From Ideonella livida (lineage in GTDB: Bacteria > Pseudomonadota > Gammaproteobacteria > Burkholderiales > Burkholderiaceae_C), in NCBI RefSeq assembly GCF_010499455.1, contig NZ_JAAGOH010000030.1, positions 1-52,495 of the forward strand: a stretch of 52,495 nt of DNA, written 5' to 3'. Each line of letters starts with the position of its first letter. Position 1 is the first letter of the stretch. This document shows, piece after piece, positions 29,818 to 45,022 of the stretch. Below the pieces are notes generated by a model. The model was given only the letters and a program-made list of their open reading frames with translations, ran no database searches and was not told the DNA's origin. The translations under genes were made by a program, and so were the position numbers.

Positions 29818-30504
29818 TCACCAGGGCACCTCCACCTTCTGCACATCGCGGTGCTGGGCGATGTAGAGCGAAGGCAGGAAGCGTGAAAGGAAGGTGAACT
29901 CGTTGTAGCAGTGCTGCAGCAGGGCGGTGCCAAAACGGTCGGGCAGCATCTGTTCAATGGCCTCGGGGCTGTGGCCGGCGGCAGGCAGGTCCTGGCCCAT
30001 GAAGAAGTGGCTGCGCAGCGCGCAGCCCCAGGGCGTGTCGCGGACGATGTGCAGCAGCCGGCCGCCCAGCAGGCGGCCGTCGGGCAGGCGCGGGGCGTCC
30101 CAGCCCATGCCGGTGCGGCCACACACCGCGCCGCTGATGCGGCCTTCGGCCCGGGCCTGCTGCACGGCCTGAGGGTCGAAGAACTCGGTCTCGTCGCGGA
30201 ACTGGATGAGCAGCTGGGCCTTGGGCTCACCGGTGAAGAATTCCTCCACCACATGGGTGCTGCCCACATGGGTGTCGGGTGTGCCCCCCTCCCAGGCGCT
30301 GGAGACATGGTCCACCGGGTGCCACCAGATGTAGCGCTCGGTGTCCGGGCGGGAGCGGAACCACCACTCGAACATGGCGCCGTTGCAGCGGTGCAGGTCG
30401 GTGCGGCAGGCCACGTGCAGCACGCCGTCGGGCAGGCGTTCGTAGCCAGTCTCCAGGCGCAGGGGCTCGGGGTGCAGCAGGGCATTGACTTCGTCGAGTC
30501 GCAT
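29818..30504 (-). CDS. DAPG hydrolase (PhlG)-family C-C hydrolase
   Basis: The 228-residue product has the PhlG/phloretin-hydrolase layout: FEWWFRSRPDTERYIWWHPVDH around residues 45-66, EE at 87-88 and a C-terminal HxxxE (H198, E202). These correspond to the zinc ligands His, Glu, His and Glu of 2,4-diacetylphloroglucinol hydrolase. Characterised members cleave an aryl-ketone carbon-carbon bond hydrolytically. The ATG at 30504 is used although the frame is open to 30579. It is the last gene of the leftward operon, 71 bp after the Liv-type ATPase gene. The physiological substrate is unlikely to be DAPG itself and is unknown. Confidence 0.82.
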   Translation of the reverse strand: MRLDEVNALLHPEPLRLETGYERLPDGVLHVACRTDLHRCNGAMFEWWFRSRPDTERYIWWHPVDHVSSAWEGGTPDTHVGSTHVVEEFFTGEPKAQLLIQFRDETEFFDPQAVQQARAEGRISGAVCGRTGMGWDAPRLPDGRLLGGRLLHIVRDTPWGCALRSHFFMGQDLPAAGHSPEAIEQMLPDRFGTALLQHCYNEFTFLSRFLPSLYIAQHRDVQKVEVPW

Positions 30505-30575
30505 GGGCTTGTCTCCGTCTTGGGTTGTCGTGCGGCGCAATGCCGACGCGCCGGGTTGGGAAGTCTGGAAGATCG

Positions 30576-32366
30576 TCAATCGGCGGTGCCGATGTAGAGG
30601 TGGCGCAGGCGTGGGTCCTCGCGCACGGCACGCGCCGGGCCCGACAGGGCGAAGCGGCCATGCTCCATGACATGCACCTCATCGGCCAGGGCCAGGGCGC
30701 GCTCCACGTCCTGCTCCACGATGAGCATGGTCAAACCGGCGGCCTTGAGCTGGGCCAGGGCCTGGTAGAGCCGATCCATCATCACCGGGGCCAGGCCCAG
30801 GCTGATCTCGTCAAAGACCACCAGGCGCGGACGGGCCATGAGGGCGCGGCCAATGGCCAGCATCTGCTGCTGCCCGCCCGACATGCTGGTGCCAGGCTGG
30901 TGGGCGCGCTCGGCCAGGTCTGGGAACAGCGCCTGCACCTGCGCCAGCCGGGCCTGGCGCTCAGGCGCCGGCAGCTTGCGCGCGGGCAGCAGCAGGTTCT
31001 CCTGCACGCTCAGGTTGGGAAAGATGCGCCGACCCTCCAGGCACTGGGCCAAGCCCAGGCGGGCAATGTGGTGGGCGGGGCGGCCGGTCACGTCCTGCCC
31101 GTCCACCCACAGCTGGCCGGCGCTGGGTGCCAGCGCGCCGCCAATGACCTGGGCCAGGGTGGTCTTGCCCGCCCCGTTGGTGCCCAAAATGGCCACCACC
31201 TGCCCGGGCCGCACCTGCAGGTCGATGCCGTTGAGCACCCGCGCCTGGCCATAGCCGGCGTGCACGCCCTGAAGTGCCAGCAGCGGCGTGTCGGCGGCCG
31301 GCACGCCAGGCGCCGGGCGCGGGGCCACCAGACCCTGCAACCCCGCCAGGCGGGCGGCGGCCGGGTTGCCCGGTACAGCCCTGGCGCCGGGCTGCACCTC
31401 ACCGGGCAGCTCGCCGGGCAGCGGCACCCAGCCGCTCGATCCCGCGTCGGATCCACTGGCGGATCCGCCAGCGGCGGCGCCAGGGCTTGCAGAATCCGCA
31501 GGCGCCGTGTTGCCCGCCCCGCCTTGCCCTGTGCCCAGGTAGACCGCGGCCACCTCATCGCTGGCCAGCACCTGCTGCACCGGGCCCTGGGCGAACAGCT
31601 TGCCAAAGTGGATCACCATGAGCCGGTCGCAGCATTCCTTGACCACCCGCAGCACATGCTCGATGAGGATGATGCCGGGCACTTCGGCGCGCAGGCTGCG
31701 GATCAGGGCGATGAGCTCGCTGACTTCGGCGTCCACCAGGCCGGCGCCCACCTCATCCAGCAGCAGCAGCTGGGGTTCCAGCGCCAGGGCGCGGGCCACC
31801 TCCAGGCGCTTGCGGCGCAGCAGGGGCAGGCTGCGGGCGGGGCCGTGGGCGGCGTCGGCCAGGCCGCAGCGAGCCAGGATGCGGTCGCAGGCGGCCTCGG
31901 CCTCGGCGCGGGAGCCCCAGGGGTGCAGGGCAAAGCGCGCGGCCAGCAGGTTTTCGCGCACGGTCATGTCCAGAAAGGGGCGCGGGATCTGGTAGGTGCG
32001 GCCCACGCCGCGGCGCGCCCGCTCGGAGGCGGCCAGGGCGGTGACGTCCTCACCGGCCAGCACGATGCGCCCGGCGCTGGGCGCCAGCGCCCCGCCCAGC
32101 AGGCCGATGAGTGTGGACTTGCCCGCGCCGTTGGGGCCGATGATGCCCAGCACCTCGCCGGCATCCAGTTGCAGGCTGACCTGGTCGGTGGCCACCACCC
32201 CGCCATAGCGCTTGACCAGGCCCTCGGCCTGCAGCAGGCGGGTGCCCGGGGCGGGCCGGGGGCGGCCGGTGGGGGTGGCGGGGGTGGTCAAGGCAGGGGA
32301 CGTCATGGCAGAAGGGGGCAAGGTCATCGGGTCACGGCGGGCGGCGCCCGCCAGGGGGGTGTTCAT
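30576..32366 (-). CDS. Fused LivG-LivF branched-chain-type ABC transporter ATPase
   Basis: The 596-residue protein carries two complete ATPase domains. The N-terminal LivG-like domain has Walker A GPNGAGKS at 77-84 and the YQIPRPF segment typical of LivG. The C-terminal LivF-like domain has Walker A GTNGAGKT at 395-402 and a SGGQQQMLAIGRALM signature. An Ala/Pro/Gly-rich linker of roughly 60-70 residues joins them. Normally LivG and LivF are separate. The start overlaps the LivM stop in an ATGA arrangement. The fusion would form the ATPase pair as one chain at the inner membrane, powering uptake by LivH/LivM. Confidence 0.93.
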   Translation of the reverse strand: MNTPLAGAARRDPMTLPPSAMTSPALTTPATPTGRPRPAPGTRLLQAEGLVKRYGGVVATDQVSLQLDAGEVLGIIGPNGAGKSTLIGLLGGALAPSAGRIVLAGEDVTALAASERARRGVGRTYQIPRPFLDMTVRENLLAARFALHPWGSRAEAEAACDRILARCGLADAAHGPARSLPLLRRKRLEVARALALEPQLLLLDEVGAGLVDAEVSELIALIRSLRAEVPGIILIEHVLRVVKECCDRLMVIHFGKLFAQGPVQQVLASDEVAAVYLGTGQGGAGNTAPADSASPGAAAGGSASGSDAGSSGWVPLPGELPGEVQPGARAVPGNPAAARLAGLQGLVAPRPAPGVPAADTPLLALQGVHAGYGQARVLNGIDLQVRPGQVVAILGTNGAGKTTLAQVIGGALAPSAGQLWVDGQDVTGRPAHHIARLGLAQCLEGRRIFPNLSVQENLLLPARKLPAPERQARLAQVQALFPDLAERAHQPGTSMSGGQQQMLAIGRALMARPRLVVFDEISLGLAPVMMDRLYQALAQLKAAGLTMLIVEQDVERALALADEVHVMEHGRFALSGPARAVREDPRLRHLYIGTAD

Positions 32367-33358
32367 GGCCGCCCTCCTCGCGCACGCCGGGCCAACGCCT
32401 GCTCCAGCAGGCCGGCCAGGCCCTGGGGCGCACGGCGGATGACCACGATCAGGATCAACCCGGTGATGGCCAGGTGCAGGGCCGGGGCGTCGGCCAGCAG
32501 CTCGGAGAGGGCCAGCACAAACACCGCGCCCAGCGCCGGCCCGGCGCGCCGGCCCTGCCCGCCGATGATGACCACCGAGAGCACGGCCACCGTCCAGCCC
32601 ATGCCAAAGGTGGCGTAGGGCTCCACCGTGCCCAGCTTCAGCGCCTGCAGGCCGCCGGCCAGGCCGGTGAGCGCGCTGGCCAGCATGAACACCAGCAACT
32701 TGATGCGGAAGGGGCGCACGCCCATCTGGCAGGCCGCGTCCTCGTCATCGCGCACGGCGCGCAGCAACAGGCCCAGGCGCGAGGCGGTCAAGCCGCTCAT
32801 GAGCAGGGTGGTGGCGGCCAGCAGGCCCAGCGCCCACTGCAGCAGGTGGCGGCTGTCGGGCGGATCGGCCGCCAGGAACAGGCCGGTGGCCCCGCCAAAG
32901 GGCGCGAAATTGACCATGAACAGGCGCAGCGCTTCGGCCAGGGCCAGGGTGCCCACGGTGAAGTACAGGCCGCGCAGGCGAAACACCGCCCGTGACACCA
33001 GTGCCGCCAGCCCGGCGGCGCCCAGCGCGCTCAGCGCCCAGGCGGCCGGCCAGGGCCAGCCAGCCTGGTTGCACAGGCCCACCAGCACATAGGCGCCCAC
33101 ACCAAAGAACGAGGCCGTGCCCAGCGAGACCAGGCCGCCGTAGCCGGCGAGCAGGTTCCAGGCCTCGGCCAACACAATGAGCAGGGCCAGGCGAAAACCC
33201 AGCTCCACCACGTAGTCCGACGCCTGGGTGGCGCCCAGGGCCAGTGCGGCCCAGGCCAGGGCCAGGCCCAGCAGGGCGCCGGCCGGGCCGCGCCAGATCG
33301 GGACCTGGGATGAGGCGGCCGGCGCCAGCACGGCGCCGCCCGGAAGATGCGTGGCCAT
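32363..33358 (-). CDS. Branched-chain-type ABC transporter permease (LivM-like)
   Basis: The 331-residue inner-membrane permease has 8-10 hydrophobic segments and LivM signatures: AEAWNLLAGYGGLVSLGTASFFGVGAY and the ATPase-contacting loop LLRAVRDDEDAACQMGVRPFRIKLLVFMLASALTG (read across residues 205-240). The ATG at 33358 overlaps the LivH stop by one base (TGATG), favouring it over the longer open frame to 33457. With LivH it forms the transmembrane channel for a small acid or amino-acid-like compound. Confidence 0.93.
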   Translation of the reverse strand: MATHLPGGAVLAPAASSQVPIWRGPAGALLGLALAWAALALGATQASDYVVELGFRLALLIVLAEAWNLLAGYGGLVSLGTASFFGVGAYVLVGLCNQAGWPWPAAWALSALGAAGLAALVSRAVFRLRGLYFTVGTLALAEALRLFMVNFAPFGGATGLFLAADPPDSRHLLQWALGLLAATTLLMSGLTASRLGLLLRAVRDDEDAACQMGVRPFRIKLLVFMLASALTGLAGGLQALKLGTVEPYATFGMGWTVAVLSVVIIGGQGRRAGPALGAVFVLALSELLADAPALHLAITGLILIVVIRRAPQGLAGLLEQALARRARGGRP

Positions 33359-34233
33359 CAGCGGCCTCCTTTCGACACCAGACCGGTGGGCCGCAGCGCC
33401 AGCACCACCAGGAACAGAACCAGGCCCACCAGGTCGCGGTAGCCGTCGCCCCACCACAGGGCCCCGGCGCTTTGCAGCAGGCCCATGGCCATGCCCGCCA
33501 GCAGGGTGCCCAGGATGTGGCCGATGCCGCCCAACACCACCACCGCCAGGCTGATGAGCAGGTAGGTGGCGCCGCCACTGGGGTTGAACGAGAAGGCGGT
33601 GCCCAGCAGCACCCCGCCCATGGCGGCGCAGGCCGCCCCCAGGGCGAAGGCCAAGGCATGCACGCGTCGGACGTCCACCCCGCAGGCCGCCGCGGCAGCG
33701 GGGTCGGCCGCACTGGCGCGCAGTGCCCGGCCAAAACCGGTGTGCGCCACCAGGCCATGCACGGCCAGCACCAGCGCCGCCGACAGGCCAAAGCCCAGCA
33801 GGTAGAGCCAGGGCACCGTGACCGGGCCCAGGTGCAGGGCGCGGGCGGCGTAGGGCAGGTCGATGCTGCGGCTGTCGGCGCTGAAGACCTGCACGAACAG
33901 GTTCTGCAGGATGATGGACACGCCGAACATGGTCATCATGGGCGCCTCCATGCCCTTGCCGGCCAGGGGCGCCACCAGCAGGCGTTGCAGCGGCCAGGCC
34001 AGGGCCGCCATGGCCAGGCCCACCAGGGGCAGCGCCAGCAGCGGATCCAGCCCGGTGAAGGCCAGCAGGTAAAAGCCCAGGTAGGCACCCAGCACCAGAA
34101 ACTCGCCGTGGGCCAGGTTCACCAGGCGCATCACCCCCAGCGCCACCGACAGGCCCAGCGCGGTCAAGGCCAACATGCCGCCCAGCAGCAGGCCCGAGGC
34201 CAGGCTGCTGGCGACCACCTCAGGATGAGGCAT
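33358..34233 (-). CDS. Branched-chain-type ABC transporter permease (LivH-like)
   Basis: The 291-residue inner-membrane permease has the LivH hallmarks: GVMRLVNLAHGEFLVLGAY early on and GFGRALRASAADPAAAAACGVDVRRVHALAFALG for the ATPase-contact loop. Two in-frame ATGs occur at 34239 and 34233. The Shine-Dalgarno sequence AAGGAG (34245-34240) abuts the first and is 6 bp from the second, so 34233 is the real start. The gene follows the binding-protein gene after 25 bp and overlaps livM. Confidence 0.93.
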   Translation of the reverse strand: MPHPEVVASSLASGLLLGGMLALTALGLSVALGVMRLVNLAHGEFLVLGAYLGFYLLAFTGLDPLLALPLVGLAMAALAWPLQRLLVAPLAGKGMEAPMMTMFGVSIILQNLFVQVFSADSRSIDLPYAARALHLGPVTVPWLYLLGFGLSAALVLAVHGLVAHTGFGRALRASAADPAAAAACGVDVRRVHALAFALGAACAAMGGVLLGTAFSFNPSGGATYLLISLAVVVLGGIGHILGTLLAGMAMGLLQSAGALWWGDGYRDLVGLVLFLVVLALRPTGLVSKGGR

Positions 34234-34258
34234 GGTCATCTCCTTGCGTCGTTTGCGC

Positions 34259-35467
34259 TCACTGCGCCACCGGCAGCGGGAAGATCAGCTTGCCGTTGGC
34301 GCGGTCCTTGGGCCACACCACCACCGGCTTGCCGCCCTGCCACTGCATGAGGGTGATGGGAATGCGCGAGGTGTGGTTGACGTCGAACTTGACCGGGCCC
34401 ACCACATAGGACTTGTCGGTGCGGCCAATGGCGGCGTTGATCTTCTCGCGGTCCAGGGTGCCCGCGGCGGCGATGGCGTCCAGCAGCACCTGCGCGGCGG
34501 CATGGCTGTCGGCGATGTGCTGGCTCTGGGTCTGGCGCGTCTCGCGCTCAAAGCGCTTGGCCAGCTCCGCCGCGCCGGGGTAAGGGAAGCTGGGGTCCCA
34601 GTAGCCGCCCACCAGCACGCCTTCGGCCAGTTTGCCCAGGCCCTGGGCGAACATTTCCGGCTCGGCCCCCTTTTCCATCACCAGGAGCTTGGGCTGGAAG
34701 CCGGCCGAGGCCATCTGCTTGCGGATGGCCATGGCCTGCGGCGGAATGGCGTCCACCAGCACCACCTCGGCCTCGGCGGCGCGGGACTCGCCAATCATGG
34801 CGGTGAACTGCTGCGCGTCCACCGGAAAGCTGCTGTTGTGGACCACGGTGTAGCCATGCGTCTGGGCATGCATGGGCCAGAGTTGACCGCCCACCACGAC
34901 ACCGTCGGGGCCGTTGTCGGCCAGGATGGCCAGGCGCTTGTTGGTGGCCAGGCTGTAGTCGGCCAGCAGCTTGAAGGGGGCGGAGGACAGGTCCACCTCG
35001 TCAAAGAACAGGGCCCAGGCGTATTGCCACTTGCGCACCATCTTGAAGGCGCCCAGCGGCGCGCAGCCCGTGACCAGGGGCACTTTGCGACGCTCGGCCA
35101 CCAGGGCGCCGGCATTGACCAGCGCCGGCGTGCACGAGCCCAGCATGGCCACCACCCCGTCGCGGGTGATGAGGGTCTGGGTGTTGCTGGCGGCCACGTT
35201 GGGGTCGGTCTTGTCGTCGCGCACGATCAGCCGCACGGGCAGCTTGCGGCCCTCCACCAGCAGGCCGCCGGCCTTGTTGAGGTCATTGACGGCGGTCTCG
35301 TAGCCCCACTTCTGGTACAGGCCGAAACCGGCCAACGGGCCCGACAGGGGCAGGGAGGCGCCGATCAGCACCTCGTCGGCCGCCTGGGCGGCGGGGCTGA
35401 TCAGGGTGGCGGCCAGGGCGGCGGCCACGGTGGCGGATGCCAGTTGCTTCAAGTTTGAGTTGGCCAT
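34259..35467 (-). CDS. Liv-type ABC transporter substrate-binding protein
   Basis: The 402-residue periplasmic protein has a signal peptide with cleavage near SPAAQAAD, then VLIGASLPLSGPLAGFG and the Peripla_BP_6 fold. AGGAG lies 8 bp before the ATG. It is the receptor of the LivHM-GF system encoded directly downstream and follows an outer-membrane barrel gene by 18 bp. In Burkholderiales such receptors often bind aromatic or short-chain acids rather than leucine, and the enzymes in the operon point the same way. Confidence 0.93.
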   Translation of the reverse strand: MANSNLKQLASATVAAALAATLISPAAQAADEVLIGASLPLSGPLAGFGLYQKWGYETAVNDLNKAGGLLVEGRKLPVRLIVRDDKTDPNVAASNTQTLITRDGVVAMLGSCTPALVNAGALVAERRKVPLVTGCAPLGAFKMVRKWQYAWALFFDEVDLSSAPFKLLADYSLATNKRLAILADNGPDGVVVGGQLWPMHAQTHGYTVVHNSSFPVDAQQFTAMIGESRAAEAEVVLVDAIPPQAMAIRKQMASAGFQPKLLVMEKGAEPEMFAQGLGKLAEGVLVGGYWDPSFPYPGAAELAKRFERETRQTQSQHIADSHAAAQVLLDAIAAAGTLDREKINAAIGRTDKSYVVGPVKFDVNHTSRIPITLMQWQGGKPVVVWPKDRANGKLIFPLPVAQ

Positions 35468-35485
35468 GGTCTTGTCTCCTCGTTG

Positions 35486-36868
35486 TCAGAAAAACACCAG
35501 CACGTCGGCCGACAGGGTGGTCTGCCGGCTGGCGCGGCCGCCGCCAAAGGCCTGGGCGCTGCCGTGGTGGCTTTGCCAGTCATGGCGGATCTCCGGGCGC
35601 AACACCACGTTGGGCGTGAGGTCCTGGCGCAGGCCCAGGGTCAGGGCGTTGAAGTCCCCGGCCACGGCGGTCACCGGAAACAGGGCCTGGGCCTGGCGGT
35701 CCTGGAAGGTCTCCAGCCGCGCGCCCCACTGGCGGTCGGGCGCGGTGCGCCACAGCACCCGGGCGTTGGCGCCGCGCCAGCTGCCGCCGGCAAAGCCCGG
35801 GCCGGTGAGCACGTCGATGGTGTCGGCACGGCCGTCGCCGTCTTGCCGGCCCCACAGCAGCTCGCCATGCAGCTCCACATCGTTGGCCGGATGGCTGGTG
35901 AAGGACAGGCTGTGGTGCTGGCGCAGCTGGCCGCGCGGCGAGATCAGCCGGGCCACGGGCATCTGCACCACACCGCCAGGCTCGTTCTGCTCGTTGCCGC
36001 GCATGAAGCTGTAGTCCACCCAGGTGGCCATGTCGCCGCTGCGCCAGCGCAGGGCGCCCACCCAGCTCTTGTCGCCGTTGTTGTCTTGCCAGTTCTGGCG
36101 GCCATTGACCACACCCGCCTCACCCATGAGCAGGCCCCAGTCGCTGCGCATGAGGTTGGCCGAGGCCAGCACGCCCGCCACCTGGTCGGGCTGGGCCACC
36201 ATGGCATAAGCCTTGGAGTAGAAGAAGTTGGGGCCGGGGCGCCAGTCGGGCGGAATCTCGCTGCCCACGCCGGAGCCGAAGCGGCCCACGGTGAAGGCCA
36301 CCCCCAGCCCCACCGGCAGGTAGGCCTGGGCGAAGACCTGGGGCAGGGCCAGGTAGTTCTGGCGGGTGCTGCCCGGGGCGGTGCCGGCGGGGGTGCGGTT
36401 CAGGCCCCACTCGGCATCCAGCCCCAGCATCCCGGCGGGCAGGCCGTTGCGGCCATAGGTCAGCTCGGCGTGCACGCCCCAGTCAAACTCCCAGGGCACC
36501 GGGCCCGGCGTGGGGGTGATGCGCGGCAGCAGGTTGGTGCGCGCCATGGGGCGCTCCAGCACCAGGGCCAGCGCATTGAGCTGCAGGCCTTCGTCAGCCG
36601 GGCCCACCACGGGGAAGTTGGAGTGGCCGGCCGCGGCCTGGTTGTGGGTGCTGGCATCGTTGGCCGACCAGCCCAGCTGCAAGTAGCCGCTGGCGTTCCA
36701 GCCGGTGGCGGCGTTGAAACGCTCGAACAGCGCGTAGGGCGCGGCCGGGGGGCCGTCGTCCTCGGGTTCGCCCGCCAGGGCGGGGGCGCCGGCCAGCAGG
36801 CTGCAGGCCAGGACGCAGGCCCGCGCCAGGGGCGTGGGCGAAGGCGTGGGCAAAGGCAGTGCGTTCAT
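35486..36868 (-). CDS. Outer-membrane beta-barrel protein (putative BBP2-type porin)
   Basis: The 460-residue product has a signal peptide (cleavage near APALAGE), alternating amphipathic strands, an early NASGYLQLGWSAND segment and a C-terminal VLVFF ending suited to barrel assembly. The layout fits putative beta-barrel porin-2 proteins rather than the Porin_4 type elsewhere in this window. GGAG lies 10 bp upstream of the ATG. Placed just before the Liv-type receptor gene, it probably gives the operon its own outer-membrane channel. Confidence 0.82.
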   Translation of the reverse strand: MNALPLPTPSPTPLARACVLACSLLAGAPALAGEPEDDGPPAAPYALFERFNAATGWNASGYLQLGWSANDASTHNQAAAGHSNFPVVGPADEGLQLNALALVLERPMARTNLLPRITPTPGPVPWEFDWGVHAELTYGRNGLPAGMLGLDAEWGLNRTPAGTAPGSTRQNYLALPQVFAQAYLPVGLGVAFTVGRFGSGVGSEIPPDWRPGPNFFYSKAYAMVAQPDQVAGVLASANLMRSDWGLLMGEAGVVNGRQNWQDNNGDKSWVGALRWRSGDMATWVDYSFMRGNEQNEPGGVVQMPVARLISPRGQLRQHHSLSFTSHPANDVELHGELLWGRQDGDGRADTIDVLTGPGFAGGSWRGANARVLWRTAPDRQWGARLETFQDRQAQALFPVTAVAGDFNALTLGLRQDLTPNVVLRPEIRHDWQSHHGSAQAFGGGRASRQTTLSADVLVFF

Positions 36869-37009
36869 CTCGGGTGTCTCCTCGAGCGGTGGGGTGCGGG
36901 TGCCGGCAGGTGGGGGGCTTGAGCCCCCTCGGCTAGGGTGCGCCGGCGGCGGTGGAAAGCAGGGACAGGCGGTGACTTGGCGTGGTGTGCTCAGGCGCTG
37001 GCGGCCGCG

Positions 37010-37951
37010 TCAGAACGCCACCTGGGCAGCCCCCTTGAGGGCCAGCATCTGCCGCGCCTCGGCCGGCGTGGCGATCTCAAAGCCGAGTTCTTCCAACAGG
37101 TGGCGGATCTTGCGCACCTGCTCGGCGTTGCTGCGGGCCATCTGGCCGCGGCCCAGGTACAGGCTGTCCTCCAGGCCCACGCGCACATGGGCGCCCTGCA
37201 GCGCGGCGGCGGTGAGCAGGCCCATCTGGTGGCGGCCCGCGCCCAGCACCGACCACTGGTAGCTGTCCGCCCCGAACAGCCGGTTGGCCGTCTCGCGCAT
37301 GAAGGTCACGTTCTGCGGGTCGGGGCCGATGCCACCCAGGATGCCAAAGATGGTCTGGATGAAGAACGGCGGCTTGATGAGGCCCTGGTCCACAAAGTGC
37401 GCCAGGTTGTAGAGGTGGCCCACGTCGTAGCACTCGAACTCGAAGCGCGTGCCGCAGCCCTCGCCCAGGTCCTGCAGGATGTGGCGGATGTCGCGGAAGG
37501 TGTTGCGGAAGATGATGTCTTCAGTGCCCTCCACATAGGCCTGCTCCCAGCCGTACTTCCAGTCCTTGATCCGGGTTGCGGCCGGATGGATGGAGAAGTT
37601 CATCGAGCCCATGTTGAGCGAGGCCATCTCGGGCTTGAAGCGCAGCGGCGGGGCCAGGCGCTCGGCCAGGGTCATCTTGGTGCTGCCGCCGCTGGTGATG
37701 TTGATGACCGCGTCGGTGGCCGCGCGGATGGCCGGCAGGAACTGGGCGAAGACCTCGGGATCGGCGCTGGGGCGGCCGTCGGCGGGGTCTCGGGCATGCA
37801 GGTGCAGGATGGCGGCGCCGGCCTGGGCCGCTTCGATGGCCTGCTCGGCGATCTGGGCGGGCGTCAGCGGCAGGTGCGGCGACATGCTGGGCGTGTGGAT
37901 GGCGCCGGTGACGGCGCAGGTGATGATCACCTTCTGGGCTGGGCGTGCCAT
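37010..37951 (-). CDS. BKACE family beta-keto acid cleavage enzyme
   Basis: The 313-residue (DUF849) protein starts KVIITCAVTGAIHTPSMSP. The zinc ligands H50 and H52 lie in ILHLHARDP; SLNMGSMNF and a late VGLEDSLY complete the site. Characterised BKACE enzymes condense a beta-keto acid with acetyl-CoA and release acetoacetate plus a new acyl-CoA. The gene directly follows a 3-hydroxyacyl dehydrogenase gene (28-bp gap) that could make the beta-keto substrate. The length is normal for the family. Confidence 0.93.
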   Translation of the reverse strand: MARPAQKVIITCAVTGAIHTPSMSPHLPLTPAQIAEQAIEAAQAGAAILHLHARDPADGRPSADPEVFAQFLPAIRAATDAVINITSGGSTKMTLAERLAPPLRFKPEMASLNMGSMNFSIHPAATRIKDWKYGWEQAYVEGTEDIIFRNTFRDIRHILQDLGEGCGTRFEFECYDVGHLYNLAHFVDQGLIKPPFFIQTIFGILGGIGPDPQNVTFMRETANRLFGADSYQWSVLGAGRHQMGLLTAAALQGAHVRVGLEDSLYLGRGQMARSNAEQVRKIRHLLEELGFEIATPAEARQMLALKGAAQVAF

Positions 37952-37979
37952 GGGGGCGTGCTCCTGGGTAGGGGGAGGA

Positions 37980-38954
37980 TCAGCGGGGCGGGGCTGTGAC
38001 GTCAGCAGGGTGTTCGGCCACCCTCTCGGCTGCGGCTTCAGCCGCGTTCATGGCCTTGAGGTGCGCCAGCACCCGGGCGCGCAAGGCAGCCTGTTCGCCG
38101 GGCGTCCAGGCGCGAAAGCCTTGGCCCGTCTTCATGCCCAGGCGGCCCTGGTCCATGAGCTGCTGCAGGTAGGCGTTGGGGGCGGTGTCGCGGTTCAGGT
38201 CGGCCAGCACGGTCTGGTGGATGGCCTGGGTCAGGTCCACGCCCACCAGGTCGGCGTTCTCCAGCGGGCCCAGCACCGGCAGGCGCCGGCCAAAGCTGGC
38301 CTTGACCACCGTGTCCACGGTGGCGGCGTCGCACACACCGTCGGCCACCAGGGCCACGGCCTCGCGCCACAGGGCATGCTGCAGGCGGTTGCCGATGAAA
38401 CCCGGCACGTCCTTGGCCACCAGGGCCGGCGTCTTGCCCACGGCGGCCAGCAGGTCGGCCATGCGCTGGGCCAGCGCCGGGTCGGTCTCGGGCGTGCGGA
38501 TGACCTCCACCAGCGGCACCAGGTAGGGCGGGTTCCACCAGTGGGTGCCCAGGGCGCGGTGGCCGGTCTTCAGGCCCTGCATGATGGCGGTGATGGGGAT
38601 GACCGAGGTGTTGCTGGCCAGCAGGGTGTGGGCCGGGCACAGGGCTTCCAGCTCGGCAAAGAGCCGCTGCTTGAAGCCCAGGTTCTCCGGCCCGGCCTCG
38701 AAGACCACGTCGGCCCGGGCCACCGCCGGGGCCAGGTCGGCCAGGGGCGTCACCCGCTGGGCCACCTGCTGGGCGGCGGCGGCGTCCTGACCCAGGTCGA
38801 TCAGGTTGGCGGCAATGCGCCCGCGCAGCGAGGCCAGGGCCTCGGCGCTGGGGTCGGTCACCGTGACGGGGTGCCCGGCCACGGCGAAGACCTGGGCGAT
38901 GCCGTGGCCCATGAGGCCCGCGCCCACGACGGCGATGTGTGCAAGATCAGCCAT
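37980..38954 (-). CDS. 3-hydroxyacyl-CoA / beta-hydroxyacid dehydrogenase (3HCDH family)
   Basis: The 324-residue cytoplasmic enzyme has a Rossmann fingerprint GAGLMGHG at 11-18, then ASNTSVIPITAIM and HWWNPPYLVPLVEV (catalytic His of the HxxNP motif), VPGFIGNRLQHALWREA, and a C-terminal helical domain ending in GRLGMKTGQGF. The HWWNPP form resembles family members that oxidise free beta-hydroxyacids. The ATG at 38954 starts 4 bp after the SDR stop; the frame is open to 38987. Together with the downstream BKACE it forms a likely oxidise-then-cleave pair. Confidence 0.9.
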   Translation of the reverse strand: MADLAHIAVVGAGLMGHGIAQVFAVAGHPVTVTDPSAEALASLRGRIAANLIDLGQDAAAAQQVAQRVTPLADLAPAVARADVVFEAGPENLGFKQRLFAELEALCPAHTLLASNTSVIPITAIMQGLKTGHRALGTHWWNPPYLVPLVEVIRTPETDPALAQRMADLLAAVGKTPALVAKDVPGFIGNRLQHALWREAVALVADGVCDAATVDTVVKASFGRRLPVLGPLENADLVGVDLTQAIHQTVLADLNRDTAPNAYLQQLMDQGRLGMKTGQGFRAWTPGEQAALRARVLAHLKAMNAAEAAAERVAEHPADVTAPPR

Positions 38955-38958
38955 GGCG

Positions 38959-39777
38959 TCAGCCCGCGGTGTAGCCACCGTCGGCATAGACGGTGTGGCC
39001 GGTGTGGAAGTCGCTGGCCCGCGAACACAGGAAGAGCAGCGGGCCGGCCAGGTCTTCCGGCTCGCCCAAGCGGCCCAGCGGCACGCGGGAGAGGAAGCCC
39101 TCGCGCACGGTGCGCGCCTTCTCGGTGTCCTCGAACATCCAGGCGGTGAGCGGCGAGCGGAACACGGTGGGCGCGATGGCGTTGACGGTGATGCCGTGCC
39201 GGCCCCACTCGCAGCCCAGGGCGCGGGTCAGCCCATCGGTGGCGGCCTTGCTGGCGCAGTAGGCGCTGTAGCCGGCCGGGTGGCCCAACTTGCCCCGGGC
39301 CGAGGAGGTGAGCACCACCTTGCCGCCGGTGCCACGCGGCACCACCCGCTGGCCAAAGGCGCGGCACAGCAGCCAGGGGCTGGTGACGTTGCCTTCCATC
39401 ACGCCCTCAAAGCGCGCCAGGGGCATGTCGATGATGGGGCACGGGTCGTTCAGGCCCGAGGCCACCACCAGGATGTCCAGCGCGTTCCAGGCCTCCAGCG
39501 CGGCGTCCATGATGGCGGCGCAGTCGGCGTCGGTGCTGGGCCGGCGCGCCACGGTGACCACCTGGGCGCCCAGGTCGCGACAGGCGGCGGCGGTGGCCTC
39601 CAGCGCGGCGGCATTGCCGGCGGCCAGCAGCAGGCGGGCGCCGGCGCCGGCCAGCACCTGGGCCGCCAGGCTGCCAAAGGCACCCGAGGCGCCGGTGACC
39701 ACGGCCACCTTGCCCCGCACGCTGAACAGGTCCTGGGGCTGGCGCAGCCATTGGGTTGAAGTCTCGGCAGTGCTCAT
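38959..39777 (-). CDS. Short-chain dehydrogenase/reductase
   Basis: The 272-residue SDR has TGASGAFG (28-35) for the cofactor, catalytic S158/S159, Y173 and K177 (YSAYCASK) and a C-terminal HTVYADGGYTAG. The usual NNAG motif reads VVASG. Its ATG overlaps the stop of the upstream cupin gene by 4 bp, and its stop is 4 bp from the next start, so it is embedded in the operon. It would oxidise or reduce an alcohol/ketone in the pathway, with NAD(P) specificity not determined. Confidence 0.92.
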   Translation of the reverse strand: MSTAETSTQWLRQPQDLFSVRGKVAVVTGASGAFGSLAAQVLAGAGARLLLAAGNAAALEATAAACRDLGAQVVTVARRPSTDADCAAIMDAALEAWNALDILVVASGLNDPCPIIDMPLARFEGVMEGNVTSPWLLCRAFGQRVVPRGTGGKVVLTSSARGKLGHPAGYSAYCASKAATDGLTRALGCEWGRHGITVNAIAPTVFRSPLTAWMFEDTEKARTVREGFLSRVPLGRLGEPEDLAGPLLFLCSRASDFHTGHTVYADGGYTAG

Positions 39778-40145
39778 GAACGCTTCTCCTGGCCCTGGGG
39801 CGCGCCCCCGGGCGGGTACGGCATGACCACCAGCAGGGTGGCCACCTCGTTGCCGTGGTTGCGCATCTCGCGCACCTCGCCGGGCGGGATGCAGACACTG
39901 TCCAGGGGGCCCAGCACGGCCTCCTCGCCAGCGGTCTTCAGGTTCACCGCACCGGCCAGCACCACGTACACCTTCTCCAGGGCCGAGCTGTCGGGGCCGG
40001 CGCCCCCACCGGGCAGCAGGTGGGACAGGCCCACCCAGAACTGCCCGGGACCACCGGCCTCGAAGCCCTGCAGGCGCAGGGCCCGCATGTCGTAGTGGTT
40101 TGGCGCCTCGTAAGGGGCCGCCTGACCAAATCGCTTGATGTGCAT
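39774..40145 (-). CDS. Small cupin-domain protein of the IclR-linked operon
   Basis: The 123-residue single cupin barrel has LLPGGGAGPDSSALEKVYVVLAG as motif 1 and CIPPGEVREMRNHGNE as motif 2. The classical first two histidines of motif 1 are absent (replaced by GPDSS), so metal binding may differ or be lost. It lies 15 bp after the cyclase gene and overlaps the SDR gene. A binding or isomerase role is possible; nothing specific can be assigned. Confidence 0.85.
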   Translation of the reverse strand: MHIKRFGQAAPYEAPNHYDMRALRLQGFEAGGPGQFWVGLSHLLPGGGAGPDSSALEKVYVVLAGAVNLKTAGEEAVLGPLDSVCIPPGEVREMRNHGNEVATLLVVMPYPPGGAPQGQEKRS

Positions 40146-40160
40146 GGCGGCGCCTTGGCT

Positions 40161-41003
40161 TCAGTCCTGGCCGTTGGCCAGGCGGTAGCCGCCCTGGCGG
40201 TCGACGATGGCCACCAGGCGCACGATGCAGCCGTCGCCCTGCTTCCAGCGCCACGGGAAGGCGGCAAAGGTGACGCGCATGCCGGTGACCTTGTCGATGT
40301 CGCCGCCCACGTTCTCAATGCCGCAGATACCGGCCTTCAGGATCGCCTGGTGGCAGGGCTCCCACTCGGGAAAGTCCTCGATCACCTTGCGGCCGGTCTC
40401 GCGCTCGTACTCGCGGTTCACGTCCGGCAGCAGGCCGTGGGGCCAGCCCGGGCCGTGCGGGCCAATGGCCGTGCCCAGCGGATGGTCCAGCGCCTGGGTG
40501 TCGGTGCCGATCATCTTGACCTTCTTCTTGGCAAACCACTCGCCCGCGCCCTTGTAGAAGCCGGGGGAGTAGGCGTAGTACTGGCGGTTGTCGCCATACG
40601 TCTTGTGCCAGCCGGTGTTGACGATGACGATGTCGCCCTCCCGGATCTGCGGGCTGGCCTTCTCCAGGTCCTCGGCGGTGATCACCTCCCACTTGCCCTT
40701 GGGAATGCTCACCACCACGCCGGTGCCGAAGAAGTGCGGCAGCGGCACCTCGTCCATGAAGGCGGTGCCTTCGACCACATGCGCCGGCGCGTCAATGTGG
40801 GTGCCCGAATGCATCACGGTGGTGATGCGCTGCGTGAGCACGCCGCTCTTGGCCATGGAGTGCAGACGCTCGATCTTCACGTCCTCGAAGTAAGGCCAGC
40901 AAGGCTGGCCCAGGCCCCAGGGGTGGCTCAGGTCATAGAACTCCAGCCCCATGTCGTTGTTGAGGTTCTCCTGGTACTGCGTACCGCGGATATCGAGGGT
41001 CAT
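40161..41003 (-). CDS. Cyclase family metal-dependent hydrolase (kynurenine formamidase-like fold)
   Basis: The 280-residue product has the family metal motif HSGTHIDAPAH (H65, H69, D71, H75) and later GTDTQALDHPLG and FAAFPWRW. AAGGAG lies 8 bp before the ATG at 41003. Relatives hydrolyse amide, lactone or isatin-type rings. It is the first gene of the 11-gene leftward operon and is divergent from iclR, so it probably carries out an early ring-opening step. Confidence 0.9.
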   Translation of the reverse strand: MTLDIRGTQYQENLNNDMGLEFYDLSHPWGLGQPCWPYFEDVKIERLHSMAKSGVLTQRITTVMHSGTHIDAPAHVVEGTAFMDEVPLPHFFGTGVVVSIPKGKWEVITAEDLEKASPQIREGDIVIVNTGWHKTYGDNRQYYAYSPGFYKGAGEWFAKKKVKMIGTDTQALDHPLGTAIGPHGPGWPHGLLPDVNREYERETGRKVIEDFPEWEPCHQAILKAGICGIENVGGDIDKVTGMRVTFAAFPWRWKQGDGCIVRLVAIVDRQGGYRLANGQD

Positions 41004-41102
41004 GTCGCGCTCCTTGCAGGGTGCCGCCCAGGCGAGCGGCCGAACGGGGATGGCCGCCGCCTGCGGGGCGGAAGCCGATGTGGGTCTGATTCGCCGCGTT
41101 TG

Positions 41103-41140
41103 CTGTATCGTTATTCGGTACAGCTGTATCGCAATGCGAT
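41103..41140. promoter_or_regulatory. IclR-type operator with three half-sites, plus a further dyad
   Basis: Half-sites are CTGTATCG (41103-41110), its inverted near-copy CGGTACAG (41116-41123) and CTGTATCG again (41124-41131). The last two form a 16-bp palindrome with one mismatch. ATCGCA-A-TGCGAT (41128-41140) is a perfect overlapping dyad. The cluster lies midway between the divergent cyclase and iclR starts. PcaU/PobR-type IclR regulators are known to use three repeats of which two are palindromic, so this is the likely binding site. Confidence 0.75.
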
Positions 41141-41297
41141 TCATTGGGAGCGGAGTGTGTGGGAAGAAAACCACCTTGCGCACTGGTGGAAACCCACCCG
41201 GGCCGACCGGGCCGATGGGCTGGCACACTGCGGCCGACATGCCGCGCGGCACCGCGCCCGGCGCCAGACCCCATCGCAGAAAAGTGCCCCAAAACCC

Positions 41298-42122
41298 ATG
41301 AAGGCCGAGGACTCCACCGCCACCCCCAGCGGCCCCGACGACGACAAGCGCCCCGACGAGGGCCGCGCCACGCCCGACAAGGGCGGCATTCAGGTGATCG
41401 CCCGCGCCGCGGCCGTGCTGCGCGCGCTCAAAGACCATCCGGCCGGCCTGTCACTGGGCGAGCTGGCCAAGCTGCTCAAGCTGCCGCGCTCCACGGTGCA
41501 GCGCATCGTGGACGCGCTGGACGAAGAGAACCTGGTGATTGCCGCCTCGCCCACGCGCGGCGTGCGCCTAGGCCCGGCCTTGCTGGCCCTGGCTGCGGCC
41601 ACGCGCTTTGAGATCGCCGAGATCGCCCGGCCCACGCTGCAGGAGATTTCTCGCCTGTGCGGCGAGACGGTGGACCTCTCGGTGCTGGACGGAGACAAGC
41701 TGGTCTTCGTGGACCAGATCGCCGGCGTTCACCGCCTGCGGGCCGAATCGGCCATTGGCGTGTCCTTCACGCTGCACGCCACCGCCCCGGGCAAGGCCAT
41801 GCTGGCGGCCCTGGAGCCGGGCGCCCTGGCCAACCTGCGGCCGCGCCTGAAGCTGCTGCGCCTGACGGCGCACACCCTCACCGCCTGGCCGGTGCTGGAG
41901 GCCGAGTTGGCCCGCGTGCGCGAGACCGGCCTGGGCACCGACCTGGAGGAAAACTCCCTGGGCATCTGCGCCCTGGCCACCGCCCTGGTGCTGCCCGGCG
42001 GTGAGATGGCCGCGCTCTCGGTGCCCGTGCCCACCCAGCGCTTTGAGGCCATGCGCGGGCAGGTGAGTGAGCTGCTGCTCAGCCTGGGCGGACGCCTGCA
42101 GCAGCAGCTCAACGGGCGCTGA
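41298..42122 (+). CDS. IclR family transcriptional regulator
   Basis: The 274-residue product has a charged N-terminal tail of about 30 residues, an IclR winged helix at about 32-90 (LSLGELAKLLKLPRSTVQRIVDALDE) and a GAF-like effector domain (ETVDLSVLDGDKLVFVDQI, HATAPGKAMLAAL, GICALATALVLP). The ATG at 41298 fits the domain start; the frame is open far upstream only because it is antisense to the cyclase gene. Divergent placement and the triple half-site operator indicate direct control of the 11-gene operon. Confidence 0.93.
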   Translation: MKAEDSTATPSGPDDDKRPDEGRATPDKGGIQVIARAAAVLRALKDHPAGLSLGELAKLLKLPRSTVQRIVDALDEENLVIAASPTRGVRLGPALLALAAATRFEIAEIARPTLQEISRLCGETVDLSVLDGDKLVFVDQIAGVHRLRAESAIGVSFTLHATAPGKAMLAALEPGALANLRPRLKLLRLTAHTLTAWPVLEAELARVRETGLGTDLEENSLGICALATALVLPGGEMAALSVPVPTQRFEAMRGQVSELLLSLGGRLQQQLNGR

Positions 42123-42308: not shown

Positions 42309-43436
42309 TCAGCGCGCCAGCCAGGCCTCAAAACGCTGGCGCAGCGCGTCGCCGTGCTGCGCCCACCAGGCCGCATCCACCTGGATCGAGCGCTTGCGGT
42401 ACCAGGGGGCGCTGGGCAGCAGGTGGGCCAGCACCGGGTCGATCAGCGTGCTGGCCGATGTGCGGGTGGGGCCATAGGCCATCAGCGGTGCCATGGCCGC
42501 CATGACGTCGGGGCGGGTGGCAAAGCGCACGAAGTCCCGGGCCACGTCGGGCCGCCGGGTGCCCTTGACGATGCCCAGGCCGGCGATGTTGAGCAGTTGC
42601 CCGTCCCACATGAAGCGCAGGGACCGCGCGCCCTTGAGCATGGCGCCGTAGGCGCGGCCGTTGTAGGTGCTGGCCATGACCACCTCGCCGTCGGCCAGCC
42701 ACTGCAGCGGGGTCATGGGCGTGTCCCACCAGCGGATGTGCGGGCGCAGCGTGTCGAGCTTGCGCAGGGCCCGGTTGACCCCCTCGGGCGTGGACAGGAC
42801 GGCATAGACCTTGTCCACCGGCACGCCGTCGGCCAGCAGGGCCCACTCCAGATTGCCCTCGGGGGAGCGCAGCAGGCCGCGCTTGCCGGGGAAGCGCTGC
42901 ACGTCGAACAGGTCGGCGATGGAGTTTGGGTCGCGCTCGGTGCGGGCCTGGCGCTTGTAGACCATGACCGTGGACCAGACGATGGTGCCGGCCAGGCAGT
43001 CGGTCAGCCCGCCGGGCATGTAGTCGTCCTGCGGCTTCTCGCCCCCCAGGCCGGGCGCCAGCTGCGCGGGGTCCAGGCGCTCGAGCAGGCCCTCCTTGCA
43101 GGCGGCCAGGGCGTCGGTCATGGTCAGGTCCACCACGTCCCACTCTGCCCGCCCGGCGGCGCGCTGCTGGCGCAGCTGCGCCAGGCCGCCGGCGTACTCG
43201 GCCATCTGCACCTTCAGGCCGGTCTTGGCCATGTAGGGCTGCACCACGGTGCTCATCTGCGCCTGGGCGAAGTTGCCTCCCCAGGAGGTGAAGGTGAGGT
43301 CGGCGGCGGCCTCGCCCGCGGCCCGGGCCGCGCCGGGCGCCAGGCCGGCCAGGGCCAGGGCCAAGCCCAGCAGGGTGGCGCCAGGGCGGCGCCGGCGGAC
43401 GCAGGCCCCAAGGGGCTGCGGCGACAGGAGGGTCAT
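42309..43436 (-). CDS. ABC transporter extracellular solute-binding protein (polyamine/spermidine type)
   Basis: The 375-residue periplasmic protein has a signal peptide (cleavage near ARAAGE), then LTFTSWGGNFAQAQ and the SBP_bac type 1/8 fold with WDVVDLTMTDALA, STVMVYK and LADGEVVMASTYNGRAY. AAGGA lies 7 bp before the ATG at 43436. Relatives bind polyamines or related amines. No permease or ATPase gene accompanies it here, so it either uses a transporter encoded elsewhere or is an orphan. It is divergent from an amine-oxidase-like gene, which supports an amine ligand. Confidence 0.9.
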   Translation of the reverse strand: MTLLSPQPLGACVRRRRPGATLLGLALALAGLAPGAARAAGEAAADLTFTSWGGNFAQAQMSTVVQPYMAKTGLKVQMAEYAGGLAQLRQQRAAGRAEWDVVDLTMTDALAACKEGLLERLDPAQLAPGLGGEKPQDDYMPGGLTDCLAGTIVWSTVMVYKRQARTERDPNSIADLFDVQRFPGKRGLLRSPEGNLEWALLADGVPVDKVYAVLSTPEGVNRALRKLDTLRPHIRWWDTPMTPLQWLADGEVVMASTYNGRAYGAMLKGARSLRFMWDGQLLNIAGLGIVKGTRRPDVARDFVRFATRPDVMAAMAPLMAYGPTRTSASTLIDPVLAHLLPSAPWYRKRSIQVDAAWWAQHGDALRQRFEAWLAR

Positions 43437-43547
43437 GGGACGTCCTTTCTTGCGGGCGGGCACCGCCGGCGGCAGGGGCGGCGGGACAGGCGTTGCGTGC
43501 AAGGGTTTGCAGGGGTCATCAGGGGCTTGCACACCCGTCGTCCATTT

Positions 43548-43578
43548 TAAATACAATATGTCTATTGTTTGTAGACAT
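43548..43578. promoter_or_regulatory. Operator dyad in the binding-protein / FAD oxidoreductase divergent region
   Basis: Perfect 7-bp arms ATGTCTA (43558-43564) and TAGACAT (43572-43578) flank TTGTTTG. An AT-rich stretch with TAAATACAAT, resembling a -10 region, adjoins it on the left, and TTGCAC lies about 19 bp upstream. This is the only AT-rich part of the 216-bp divergent region, so both promoters probably overlap the dyad. The adjacent GlxA/AraC regulator (45961) is one candidate binder. Confidence 0.6.
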
Positions 43579-43652
43579 TGACGGACACCCCTTCTCCGGG
43601 CGGCCGCCCACCGCCCTTCGGCGGGGCTGCCCGCACAGCCTGAAACGACCCC

Positions 43653-44975: not shown

Positions 44976-45022
44976 GCCCGCCCCGCGCCCCTTCCTCCCC
45001 CTTGACCTCAGGAATCCAAACC

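What the first reader, a model, noticed from the sequence alone, without database searches (positions are those of the whole stretch)
29818..42122. Uncharacterised 11-gene catabolic and uptake operon with two C-C-cleaving enzymes
One leftward operon with 1-4 bp overlaps or short gaps joins a cyclase-type hydrolase, cupin, SDR, beta-hydroxyacid dehydrogenase, BKACE, outer-membrane barrel, a complete Liv-type ABC importer and a PhlG-type hydrolase, with a divergent iclR gene. PhlG hydrolyses beta-diketone-like aryl ketones and BKACE cleaves beta-keto acids, so the order suggests import, ring opening, oxidation and two ketone cleavages. I know of no described pathway with this set; a polyketide-like or aromatic ketone substrate is my inference. 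This is the best candidate for an undescribed system here.
Basis: partly seen in the sequence, partly recalled or inferred. Interest (0 to 1): 0.75.

Follow-up and report, generated by a model that had tools for sequence, protein, structure and literature searches.

The report
Phloroglucinol uptake and breakdown operon
This is a bacterial gene set that most likely imports plant- or microbe-made phloroglucinol compounds and breaks their ring down for food by a pathway already described in 2023, so it is real and well organised but largely known rather than a new kind of system.

Summary
The operon is real: eleven leftward genes (29818-41003), gaps -4 to 28 bp except one of 141 bp, and a divergent iclR (41298-42122). 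That no described pathway has this set is wrong: cyclase + SDR + 3HCDH-type dehydrogenase + BKACE is the phloroglucinol pathway (PGR, DPGC, TfD, TAL) reconstituted from Clostridium scatologenes (PMC10470551), whose survey figure also lists DAPG/phloretin hydrolase. Sequence agrees: the SDR's nearest solved structure is (recalled) phloroglucinol reductase; the cyclase has the W-x-Y motif; the dehydrogenase keeps the catalytic residues but not two CoA contacts; the BKACE passes NCBI's model for 3,5-dioxohexanoate. PhlG would release phloroglucinol from acylphloroglucinols. The core recurs in three phyla seen here; clusters with Liv importer and PhlG occur in Burkholderia, Pararobbsia, Pseudomonas, Cupriavidus and an unnamed genus. 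A palindrome in the iclR-cyclase gap has no other exact copy in the genome. Open points: a metal-free cupin of unknown role (relatives in 72 of 88 loci), a reductase without the NADPH motif, and a BKACE of another subfamily than the characterised lyase. New member of a known kind; the cupin is the interesting part.

The parts
41298..42122 (+). iclR: IclR-family regulator, divergent from the operon (274 aa, ATG 41298)
   Evidence: IclR_C and HTH_IclR; start chosen; 70 of 88 loci hold a relative in the stretch searched
41117..41130 (.). predicted IclR operator, palindrome GRTACANNTGTACC, 113 bp upstream of the cyclase start
   Evidence: only exact match in the 5.26 Mb draft genome; 10 of 12 exact matches in 88 loci lie within 350 bp upstream of the cyclase gene, 4 of the 10 in loci not used to find the motif
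40161..41003 (-). cyclase-family hydrolase, dihydrophloroglucinol cyclohydrolase-like (280 aa)
   Evidence: PF04199; 91% to a Rubrivivax gelatinosus protein; W-P-Y motif in 88 of 90 rows
39774..40145 (-). small cupin without conserved metal ligands (123 aa), role unknown
   Evidence: PF07883; Y12, H17, G65, D82, R92 invariant in 74 sequences; AlphaFold model pLDDT 93; nearest fold TM1459
38959..39777 (-). SDR, phloroglucinol reductase-like (272 aa)
   Evidence: best solved structure 5g4k/5g4l, 182 bits against 140 for the next protein
37980..38954 (-). 3-hydroxyacid dehydrogenase, TfD-like (ATG 38954 preferred; longest ORF starts at 38987)
   Evidence: 3HCDH; catalytic residues kept and two CoA contacts lost
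37010..37951 (-). BKACE, predicted 3,5-dioxohexanoate (triacetate) cleaving (313 aa)
   Evidence: NCBIfam equivalog NF053538, 530.6 bits, cut-off 430
35486..36868 (-). BBP2-type outer-membrane porin (460 aa)
   Evidence: PF07642; relatives beside pathway genes in L082 and L138
34259..35467 (-). LivK-type periplasmic binding protein (402 aa)
   Evidence: PF13458
33358..34239 (-). LivH-type permease (293 aa)
   Evidence: PF02653
32363..33358 (-). LivM-type permease (ATG 33358 behind AAAGGAGG)
   Evidence: PF02653; start candidates
30576..32366 (-). fused LivG-LivF ATPase (596 aa)
   Evidence: two ABC_tran domains; a single frame covering both domains in 6 of 10 other loci checked
29818..30579 (-). 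PhlG-family (DAPG/phloretin) C-C hydrolase (TTG 30579 overlapping livGF, or ATG 30504)
   Evidence: PF18089 E 7.4e-40; 3hwp, 5xe5 and 5xey the only solved matches

Best explanation
An IclR-controlled operon for taking up and mineralising phloroglucinol and, very likely, acylphloroglucinols. Inferred order: BBP2 porin and Liv-type ABC importer bring the aromatic in; the PhlG-family hydrolase removes an acyl side chain to give phloroglucinol; the SDR reduces it to dihydrophloroglucinol; the cyclase-family hydrolase opens the ring to 3-hydroxy-5-oxohexanoate; the 3HCDH-type dehydrogenase oxidises this to 3,5-dioxohexanoate (triacetate); BKACE plus acetyl-CoA gives acetoacetate and acetoacetyl-CoA. 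The four last steps are shown biochemically for homologues of C. scatologenes (published) and are inferred here from sequence. The importer substrate and the PhlG substrate are inferred; the role of the cupin is unknown.
For: The published cluster has these four families together and its pathway was reconstituted in vitro; it is reported in R. gelatinosus, cited there as a phloroglucinol degrader. SDR: nearest solved chain 5g4k/5g4l by 42 bits, sharing the TVFRSxLTxWMF stretch. Cyclase: W36-P-Y38, as CsDPGC Trp20/Tyr22 by spacing. Dehydrogenase: Ser, His, Asn of catalysis kept, Lys56 to Gln and Asn221 to Arg, as the paper reports losses for TfD. BKACE: passes NF053538. PhlG: PF18089, and the four positions that I recall as Zn ligands (H129, E160, H270, E274) are kept as H66, E88, H198, E202 on the alignment. 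In 88 loci chosen by the cyclase, relatives of SDR are found in 82, cupin 72, dehydrogenase 66, BKACE 62. Part swapping: window-type SDR with the Trp-type BKACE in L043 and L045, Arg-type SDR with window-type BKACE in L050 and L051, as expected if both sets share intermediates. Core + Liv + PhlG in L019, L020, L022, L082, L087 and L119. Operator.
Against: The SDR lacks the TR(S/N) NADPH motif reported for phloroglucinol reductases (window AAGN). The BKACE has Ile, not Trp, at the Glu14/Trp16 position of TAL, so it is not of the CsTAL subfamily; conversely the Trp-type BKACEs of L099 and L043 do not pass NF053538 (243.7 and 239.7 of 430), and on what evidence NCBI named that model I did not see. 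R. gelatinosus DSM 1709 has a separate cluster (L099) whose SDR and cyclase are 39% and 60% identical to the window's; its 91% cyclase is an orphan next to iclR, so the 91% match does not by itself transfer the function. PhlG is far below NCBI's DAPG-specific cut-off (46 of 600 bits), and 10 of 12 other PF18089 flanks show no cyclase, cupin or BKACE. No activity, growth or transcript data for any window gene. The C. scatologenes proteins themselves were not held, so the comparison with them rests on residues named in the paper.
Confidence: 0.85

Rival explanations
1. Same chemistry on a substituted ring: the true substrate is an alkylated or otherwise substituted phloroglucinol (or resorcinol-like) compound, giving a substituted triacetate, and phloroglucinol itself is handled elsewhere.
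For: The window set is a distinct branch: cyclase apart from the R. gelatinosus L099/Acetoanaerobium one (100/100 support), another BKACE subfamily, no NADPH motif in the SDR; R. gelatinosus carries a cyclase of each branch, which suggests that they are not redundant.
Against: NF053538 names unsubstituted 3,5-dioxohexanoate; parts of the two sets are swapped in L043, L045, L050 and L051.
Confidence: 0.12
2. The core degrades phloroglucinol but PhlG and the Liv importer serve another aryl ketone and only share the transcript.
For: PhlG is divergent from both characterised members (49.9 and 45.6 bits); most other PF18089 genes lie away from the pathway (10 of 12); only 10 of 88 core loci hold a window-like PhlG at E 1e-8.
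Against: PhlG lies in the cluster in several genera, in different positions (L019, L022, L082, L087, L119); phloroglucinol, a product of this family's phloretin hydrolases (family knowledge), is the core's substrate.
Confidence: 0.15
3. Unrelated pathway: a beta-hydroxy acid or polyketide degradation with an unknown substrate.
For: Family annotations alone do not fix substrates; cyclase, SDR and 3HCDH families are broad.
Against: Each of the four core enzymes carries a pathway-specific mark and the set matches one published gene set.
Confidence: 0.04

Closest known systems
Phloroglucinol degradation cluster PGR-DPGC-TfD-TAL of Clostridium scatologenes (PMC10470551)
   Same: Same four enzyme families, same expected intermediates, same key residues in cyclase and dehydrogenase; the paper's survey figure legend also lists DAPG_hydrolase
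   Different: Here with an IclR, a cupin, a porin and a Liv ABC importer instead of the major-family transporter named there; SDR without the NADPH motif; BKACE of the NF053538 type with Ile in place of Trp16; no CoA transferase or thiolase in the operon (a CoA-transferase relative, 42%, lies elsewhere in the genome)
Rubrivivax gelatinosus DSM 1709 genes (L099, L018, L138)
   Same: CoA-transferase genes, cupin, SDR, cyclase and Trp-type BKACE together (L099); 91% cyclase + iclR (L018); 76% dehydrogenase, 58% porin and a 33% PhlG relative together (L138)
   Different: Genes are spread over three places; the SDR and BKACE of L099 belong to the other subfamilies
Burkholderia paludis / Pararobbsia silviterrae operons (L019, L022)
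   Same: iclR | cyclase-cupin-SDR-dehydrogenase-BKACE-LivK-LivH-LivM-LivGF-PhlG, fused LivGF, 63-90% identical proteins
   Different: No BBP2 porin found in the fetched stretch
PhlG (3hwp) and phloretin hydrolase (5xe5)
   Same: Same Pfam family and, by recalled ligand names, the same metal ligands
   Different: Scores of about 50 bits only; the match starts near residue 60-70 of those chains, so the window protein is shorter at its N-terminus; substrate not known

Membership tests
Phloroglucinol (PGR-DPGC-TfD-TAL) catabolic cluster | Four genes SDR, cyclase-family hydrolase, 3HCDH-type dehydrogenase and BKACE co-located | tested here: met
Phloroglucinol (PGR-DPGC-TfD-TAL) catabolic cluster | Cyclase with Trp and Tyr in place of isatin hydrolase Ile32/Leu34 | tested here: met
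   W36-P37-Y38, in 88 of 90 rows; matched by spacing, CsDPGC itself not held
Phloroglucinol (PGR-DPGC-TfD-TAL) catabolic cluster | Dehydrogenase keeps catalytic Ser/His/Asn but lacks CoA-contact Lys56 and Asn221 | tested here: met
   alignment to 6aa8: Lys56 to Gln, Asn221 to Arg; Ser117, His138, Asn188 kept; numbering offset of 20 inferred
Phloroglucinol (PGR-DPGC-TfD-TAL) catabolic cluster | BKACE acts on 3,5-dioxohexanoate | tested here: inconclusive
   passes the curated cut-off of NF053538, named for this substrate; activity not assayed, basis of the name not seen
CsTAL subfamily (Trp-type BKACE) | Trp at the position of Kce Glu14 | tested here: not met
   Ile in the window; Trp in L017, L043, L045, L099. 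Filed only as a BKACE predicted to do the same reaction
NADPH-dependent phloroglucinol reductase | TR(S/N) motif contacting the NADPH 2'-phosphate | tested here: not met
   AAGN in the window; 80 of 84 SDR rows lack Arg in that column. The SDR is called PGR-like
NADPH-dependent phloroglucinol reductase | Closest to the solved phloroglucinol reductase | tested here: met
   5g4k/5g4l 182 bits, next protein 140; that 5g4k is this enzyme is recalled, the entry's molecule name is generic
PhlG / DAPG hydrolase (PF18089) | Pfam cut-off and Zn ligands | tested here: met
   137 bits against 22.7; four ligand positions kept (ligand names recalled)
2,4-diacetylphloroglucinol-specific PhlG (NF047887) | NCBIfam equivalog cut-off 600 bits | tested here: not met
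   46.2 bits
Metal-dependent cupin enzymes (TM1459-like) | His ligands at TM1459 positions 52, 54, 58 and 92 (roles recalled) | tested here: not met
   columns 52, 54, 58 and 92 of the 74-sequence alignment hold no conserved His; 92 is invariant Arg. That these columns match TM1459's numbers is inferred from the aligned ranges 1-111, not printed residue by residue
Operon induced by phloroglucinol | Co-transcription and induction | not testable with these tools
   only gene spacing and the operator are known

The most novel reading that the evidence does not exclude
The small metal-free cupin is an unrecognised, generally needed catalyst of bacterial phloroglucinol breakdown, for example the tautomerase that dearomatises phloroglucinol to its keto form for the reductase or presents the diketo form of dihydrophloroglucinol to the cyclase. 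Together with a reductase that has lost the NADPH motif, this would make the route a redox-closed NAD(H) loop, and would mean that the beta-galactosidase label on the mycobacterial cupin relative is misplaced.
Probability: 0.3. Interest if true: 0.55.

Novelty: new member of a known kind. Interest (0 to 1): 0.35.

Why it matters
It turns an 'unknown pathway' into a testable, mostly known one, links acylphloroglucinol deacylation and dedicated uptake to the phloroglucinol ring-opening route in free-living proteobacteria, and points out one conserved component (the cupin) that the main text of the published pathway does not mention.

Tried and rejected
Rejected: carnitine-type route (3HCDH + BKACE), because the BKACE passes the 3,5-dioxohexanoate model, the dehydrogenase is far below the carnitine dehydrogenase cut-offs, and the cyclase and SDR would be unexplained. 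Rejected: cupin as a metal-dependent dioxygenase (Dke1- or quercetinase-like, my idea), because no metal His triad is conserved. Considered and weakened: direct hydrolysis of phloroglucinol by cyclase + cupin without reduction, suggested by L052-L054, which have cyclase, cupin and BKACE but no SDR or 3HCDH in the stretch; their genomes hold SDR relatives of 60% (L052, L053; best 37% for L054) and 3HCDH relatives of 49% (all three, the L054 one with a stop inside as read) elsewhere. Compositional sign of recent transfer: none (operon 71.2% GC, rest of window 72.0%), although the cyclase is absent at E 1e-40 from the 148 other relatives searched. R. gelatinosus 91% cyclase as direct proof of function: rejected because that genome's cluster is elsewhere. 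The fold list gave no functional answer for the cupin; rows such as RemF, KdgF, BacB and AerE share the fold only. L028 was set aside in the part-swapping argument because its BKACE and dehydrogenase look unrelated (TGAGDTT, VGHPFNPV). L110 gave no PhlG hit by tblastn although the family search had listed it weakly. With two mismatches allowed the operator pattern is not rarer in the window than chance would allow (4 found, 1.66 expected, 12 of 100 shuffles reach it); the case rests on the exact matches.

Literature: searches (with a PDB code, found nothing). No held paper has both 'phloroglucinol' and 'BKACE'; 'cupin' occurs 0 times in the main text of PMC10470551. Its supplements were not readable here, so whether this very operon or the cupin is listed there is unknown. 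Of PMC10470551 I saw the abstract, Results parts 1-2 of 3, section 12, the Discussion and search passages; of PMC7873859 only passages; of the others only listings.
Full report
WHAT IS THERE. The window (72% GC) is contig 30 of a 5.26 Mb draft genome. On the minus strand, from 41003 down to 29818, lie eleven genes: cyclase-family hydrolase, small cupin, SDR, 3-hydroxyacyl-CoA-dehydrogenase-type enzyme, BKACE, BBP2 porin, LivK, LivH, LivM, a fused LivG-LivF ATPase and a PhlG-family hydrolase. Gaps are 15, -4, 4, 28, 141, 18, 19, -1, -4 and -4 bp with the starts I chose. A divergent iclR gene runs 41298-42122.

THE KNOWN PATHWAY. A paper of 2023 (PMC10470551; abstract, Results parts 1-2 of 3, section 12, Discussion and passages seen) describes a cluster in Clostridium scatologenes with phloroglucinol reductase (SDR), dihydrophloroglucinol cyclohydrolase (cyclase family), triacetate-forming dehydrogenase (3HCDH family) and triacetate acetoacetate-lyase (BKACE family), reconstitutes the four steps in vitro, and reports the cluster in Rubrivivax gelatinosus, rhizobia, marine proteobacteria and mycobacteria; its Fig. 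8 legend includes DAPG_hydrolase, phloretin hydrolase. The window core is the same four families.

ENZYME BY ENZYME. SDR: the nearest solved chains are 5g4k/5g4l at 182 bits, the next protein 140; I recall 5g4k as the phloroglucinol reductase of Clostridium sp. ATCC BAA-442, whose structure the paper mentions (no code in the passage). Both share a TVFRSxLTxWMF stretch. The NADPH motif TR(S/N) is absent (AAGN), and 80 of 84 aligned SDR rows lack Arg in that column; the four with Arg are L017, L050, L051 and L099. Cyclase: W36-P-Y38, matching Trp20 and Tyr22 of the characterised enzyme by spacing, in 88 of 90 rows; one exception is WPSS (L016), the other is cut by the contig end (L055). Dehydrogenase: against 6aa8 the catalytic Ser117, His138 and Asn188 are kept and the CoA contacts Lys56 and Asn221 are Gln and Arg, as the paper reports losses for the triacetate-forming enzyme. 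BKACE: 530.6 bits in NCBIfam NF053538, 3,5-dioxohexanoate:acetyl-CoA acetone transferase, cut-off 430. It is not of the Trp type of the characterised lyase: the position holds Ile. Three window-type relatives also pass that model (L024, L082, L087; 525-534 bits) and the two Trp-type ones tested do not (L043, L099), so the model marks the window's subfamily; how NCBI came to its name I did not see. PhlG: PF18089, 49.9 bits to PhlG 3hwp and 45.6 to phloretin hydrolase 5xe5; the four positions that I recall as zinc ligands are kept; it fails the DAPG-specific NCBIfam cut-off (46 of 600).

CONSERVATION. With the window proteins as queries (tblastn, E 1e-8) I searched 88 loci chosen by the cyclase: 8 of the 9 plasmid records and the 80 that one search kept of 556. 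Several are cut by contig ends, and a hit means a relative in the stretch, not always a neighbour or an orthologue (for LivGF some are other ABC ATPases). Relatives are found for SDR in 82, cupin in 72, iclR in 70, dehydrogenase in 66, BKACE in 62, LivGF in 22, LivK, LivH and LivM in 17 each, PhlG in 10 and the porin in 1. L019, L020, L022, L082 and L087 hold core + Liv + PhlG (5 of 88); L019 and L022 have the window's order on one strand, while in L082 the Liv and porin genes and in L087 the dehydrogenase lie on the other strand (the order in L020 was not printed). PF18089 occurs in 6 of 370 class and 9 of 397 phylum genomes, own included in both. I fetched the flanks of all 12 other genomes: 2, of one genus (L119, L120), have it inside such an operon, L120 being cut by its contig end; 10 show no cyclase, cupin or BKACE in the stretch, though L122 has an IclR relative beside its PhlG. 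None of 148 other relatives has the cyclase at E 1e-40.

PART SWAPPING. SDR and BKACE come in subfamilies. In 29 loci the window-type SDR goes with the window-type BKACE. L043 and L045 join the window-type SDR to the Trp-type BKACE, L050 and L051 join the Arg-type SDR to the window-type BKACE, L031 and L034 join the window-type SDR to the actinobacterial-type BKACE (L028 set aside). This is expected if the sets share intermediates. The cyclase tree separates the L099/Acetoanaerobium pair from the other 88 rows and puts the window with L018, L019, L020 and L022 (midpoint root, bootstrap not fully settled, long branches flagged).

RUBRIVIVAX. R. gelatinosus DSM 1709 (the paper cites the species as a degrader) has CoA-transferase genes, cupin, SDR, cyclase and Trp-type BKACE together (L099), a second cyclase 91% identical to the window's beside an iclR (L018), and a 76% dehydrogenase with a 58% porin and a 33% PhlG relative (L138). 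This supports porin and PhlG as pathway partners, and also warns that the two cyclase branches may not be redundant.

REGULATION. The iclR-cyclase gap holds a palindrome, GRTACANNTGTACC, at 41117-41130, the only exact match in the genome. In 88 loci (1.55 Mb), 10 of 12 exact matches lie within 350 bp upstream of the cyclase gene; 6 of these 10 loci were among the 12 from whose gaps the motif was read, 4 (L014, L048, L050, L064) were not. Seventy-eight of the 88 loci have no exact copy there. A sigma-70 scan found nothing.

VERDICT. Known pathway, new member, with an unusually complete uptake and deacylation set. Shown: gene content, conservation, motif states, the candidate operator. Inferred: substrates, order, importer role, regulation. 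Unknown: cupin.

Noticed in passing
L052 8720-14630, L053 3033-7458, L054 5484-9713: Three betaproteobacterial loci have divergent BKACE | cyclase-cupin without SDR or 3HCDH in the stretch; D-2-hydroxyacid dehydrogenases (2-Hacid_dh) lie beside them in L052 and L053 (L054 not scanned). SDR relatives (60% in two of the genomes) and 3HCDH relatives (49% in all three) exist elsewhere in those genomes.
   Followed up: partly
L018, L099, L138 (Rubrivivax gelatinosus DSM 1709): Phloroglucinol-type genes in three places, with two cyclases of different branches and an orphan cyclase-iclR pair.
   Followed up: partly
L016 9153-13832 (Rhizobium sp. ACO-34A plasmid): Two tandem cyclases with SDR and 3HCDH relatives, but an annotated fumarylacetoacetase next in line and no BKACE found; the W-P-Y motif is not kept. 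Possibly a related route to another diketone.
   Followed up: no
window 30576-32366: LivG and LivF are fused in one frame with a long linker; a single frame covering both domains is also seen in L019, L020, L022, L023, L040 and L082 (6 of 10 checked).
   Followed up: yes
L012 and other Mycobacterium loci: Relatives of the cupin family that carries the 'beta-galactosidase' label lie next to cyclase, SDR and BKACE genes, which is hard to reconcile with a galactosidase role; 13 other mycobacterial loci show only SDR, cyclase and iclR relatives at the threshold used.
   Followed up: partly
window 42309-45919: Next to the operon, genes of an SBP_bac_8 binding protein (minus strand), a DAO-type FAD oxidoreductase and a DHDPS-family enzyme (both plus strand) look like a separate amino-acid or imino-acid catabolic set.
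   Followed up: no
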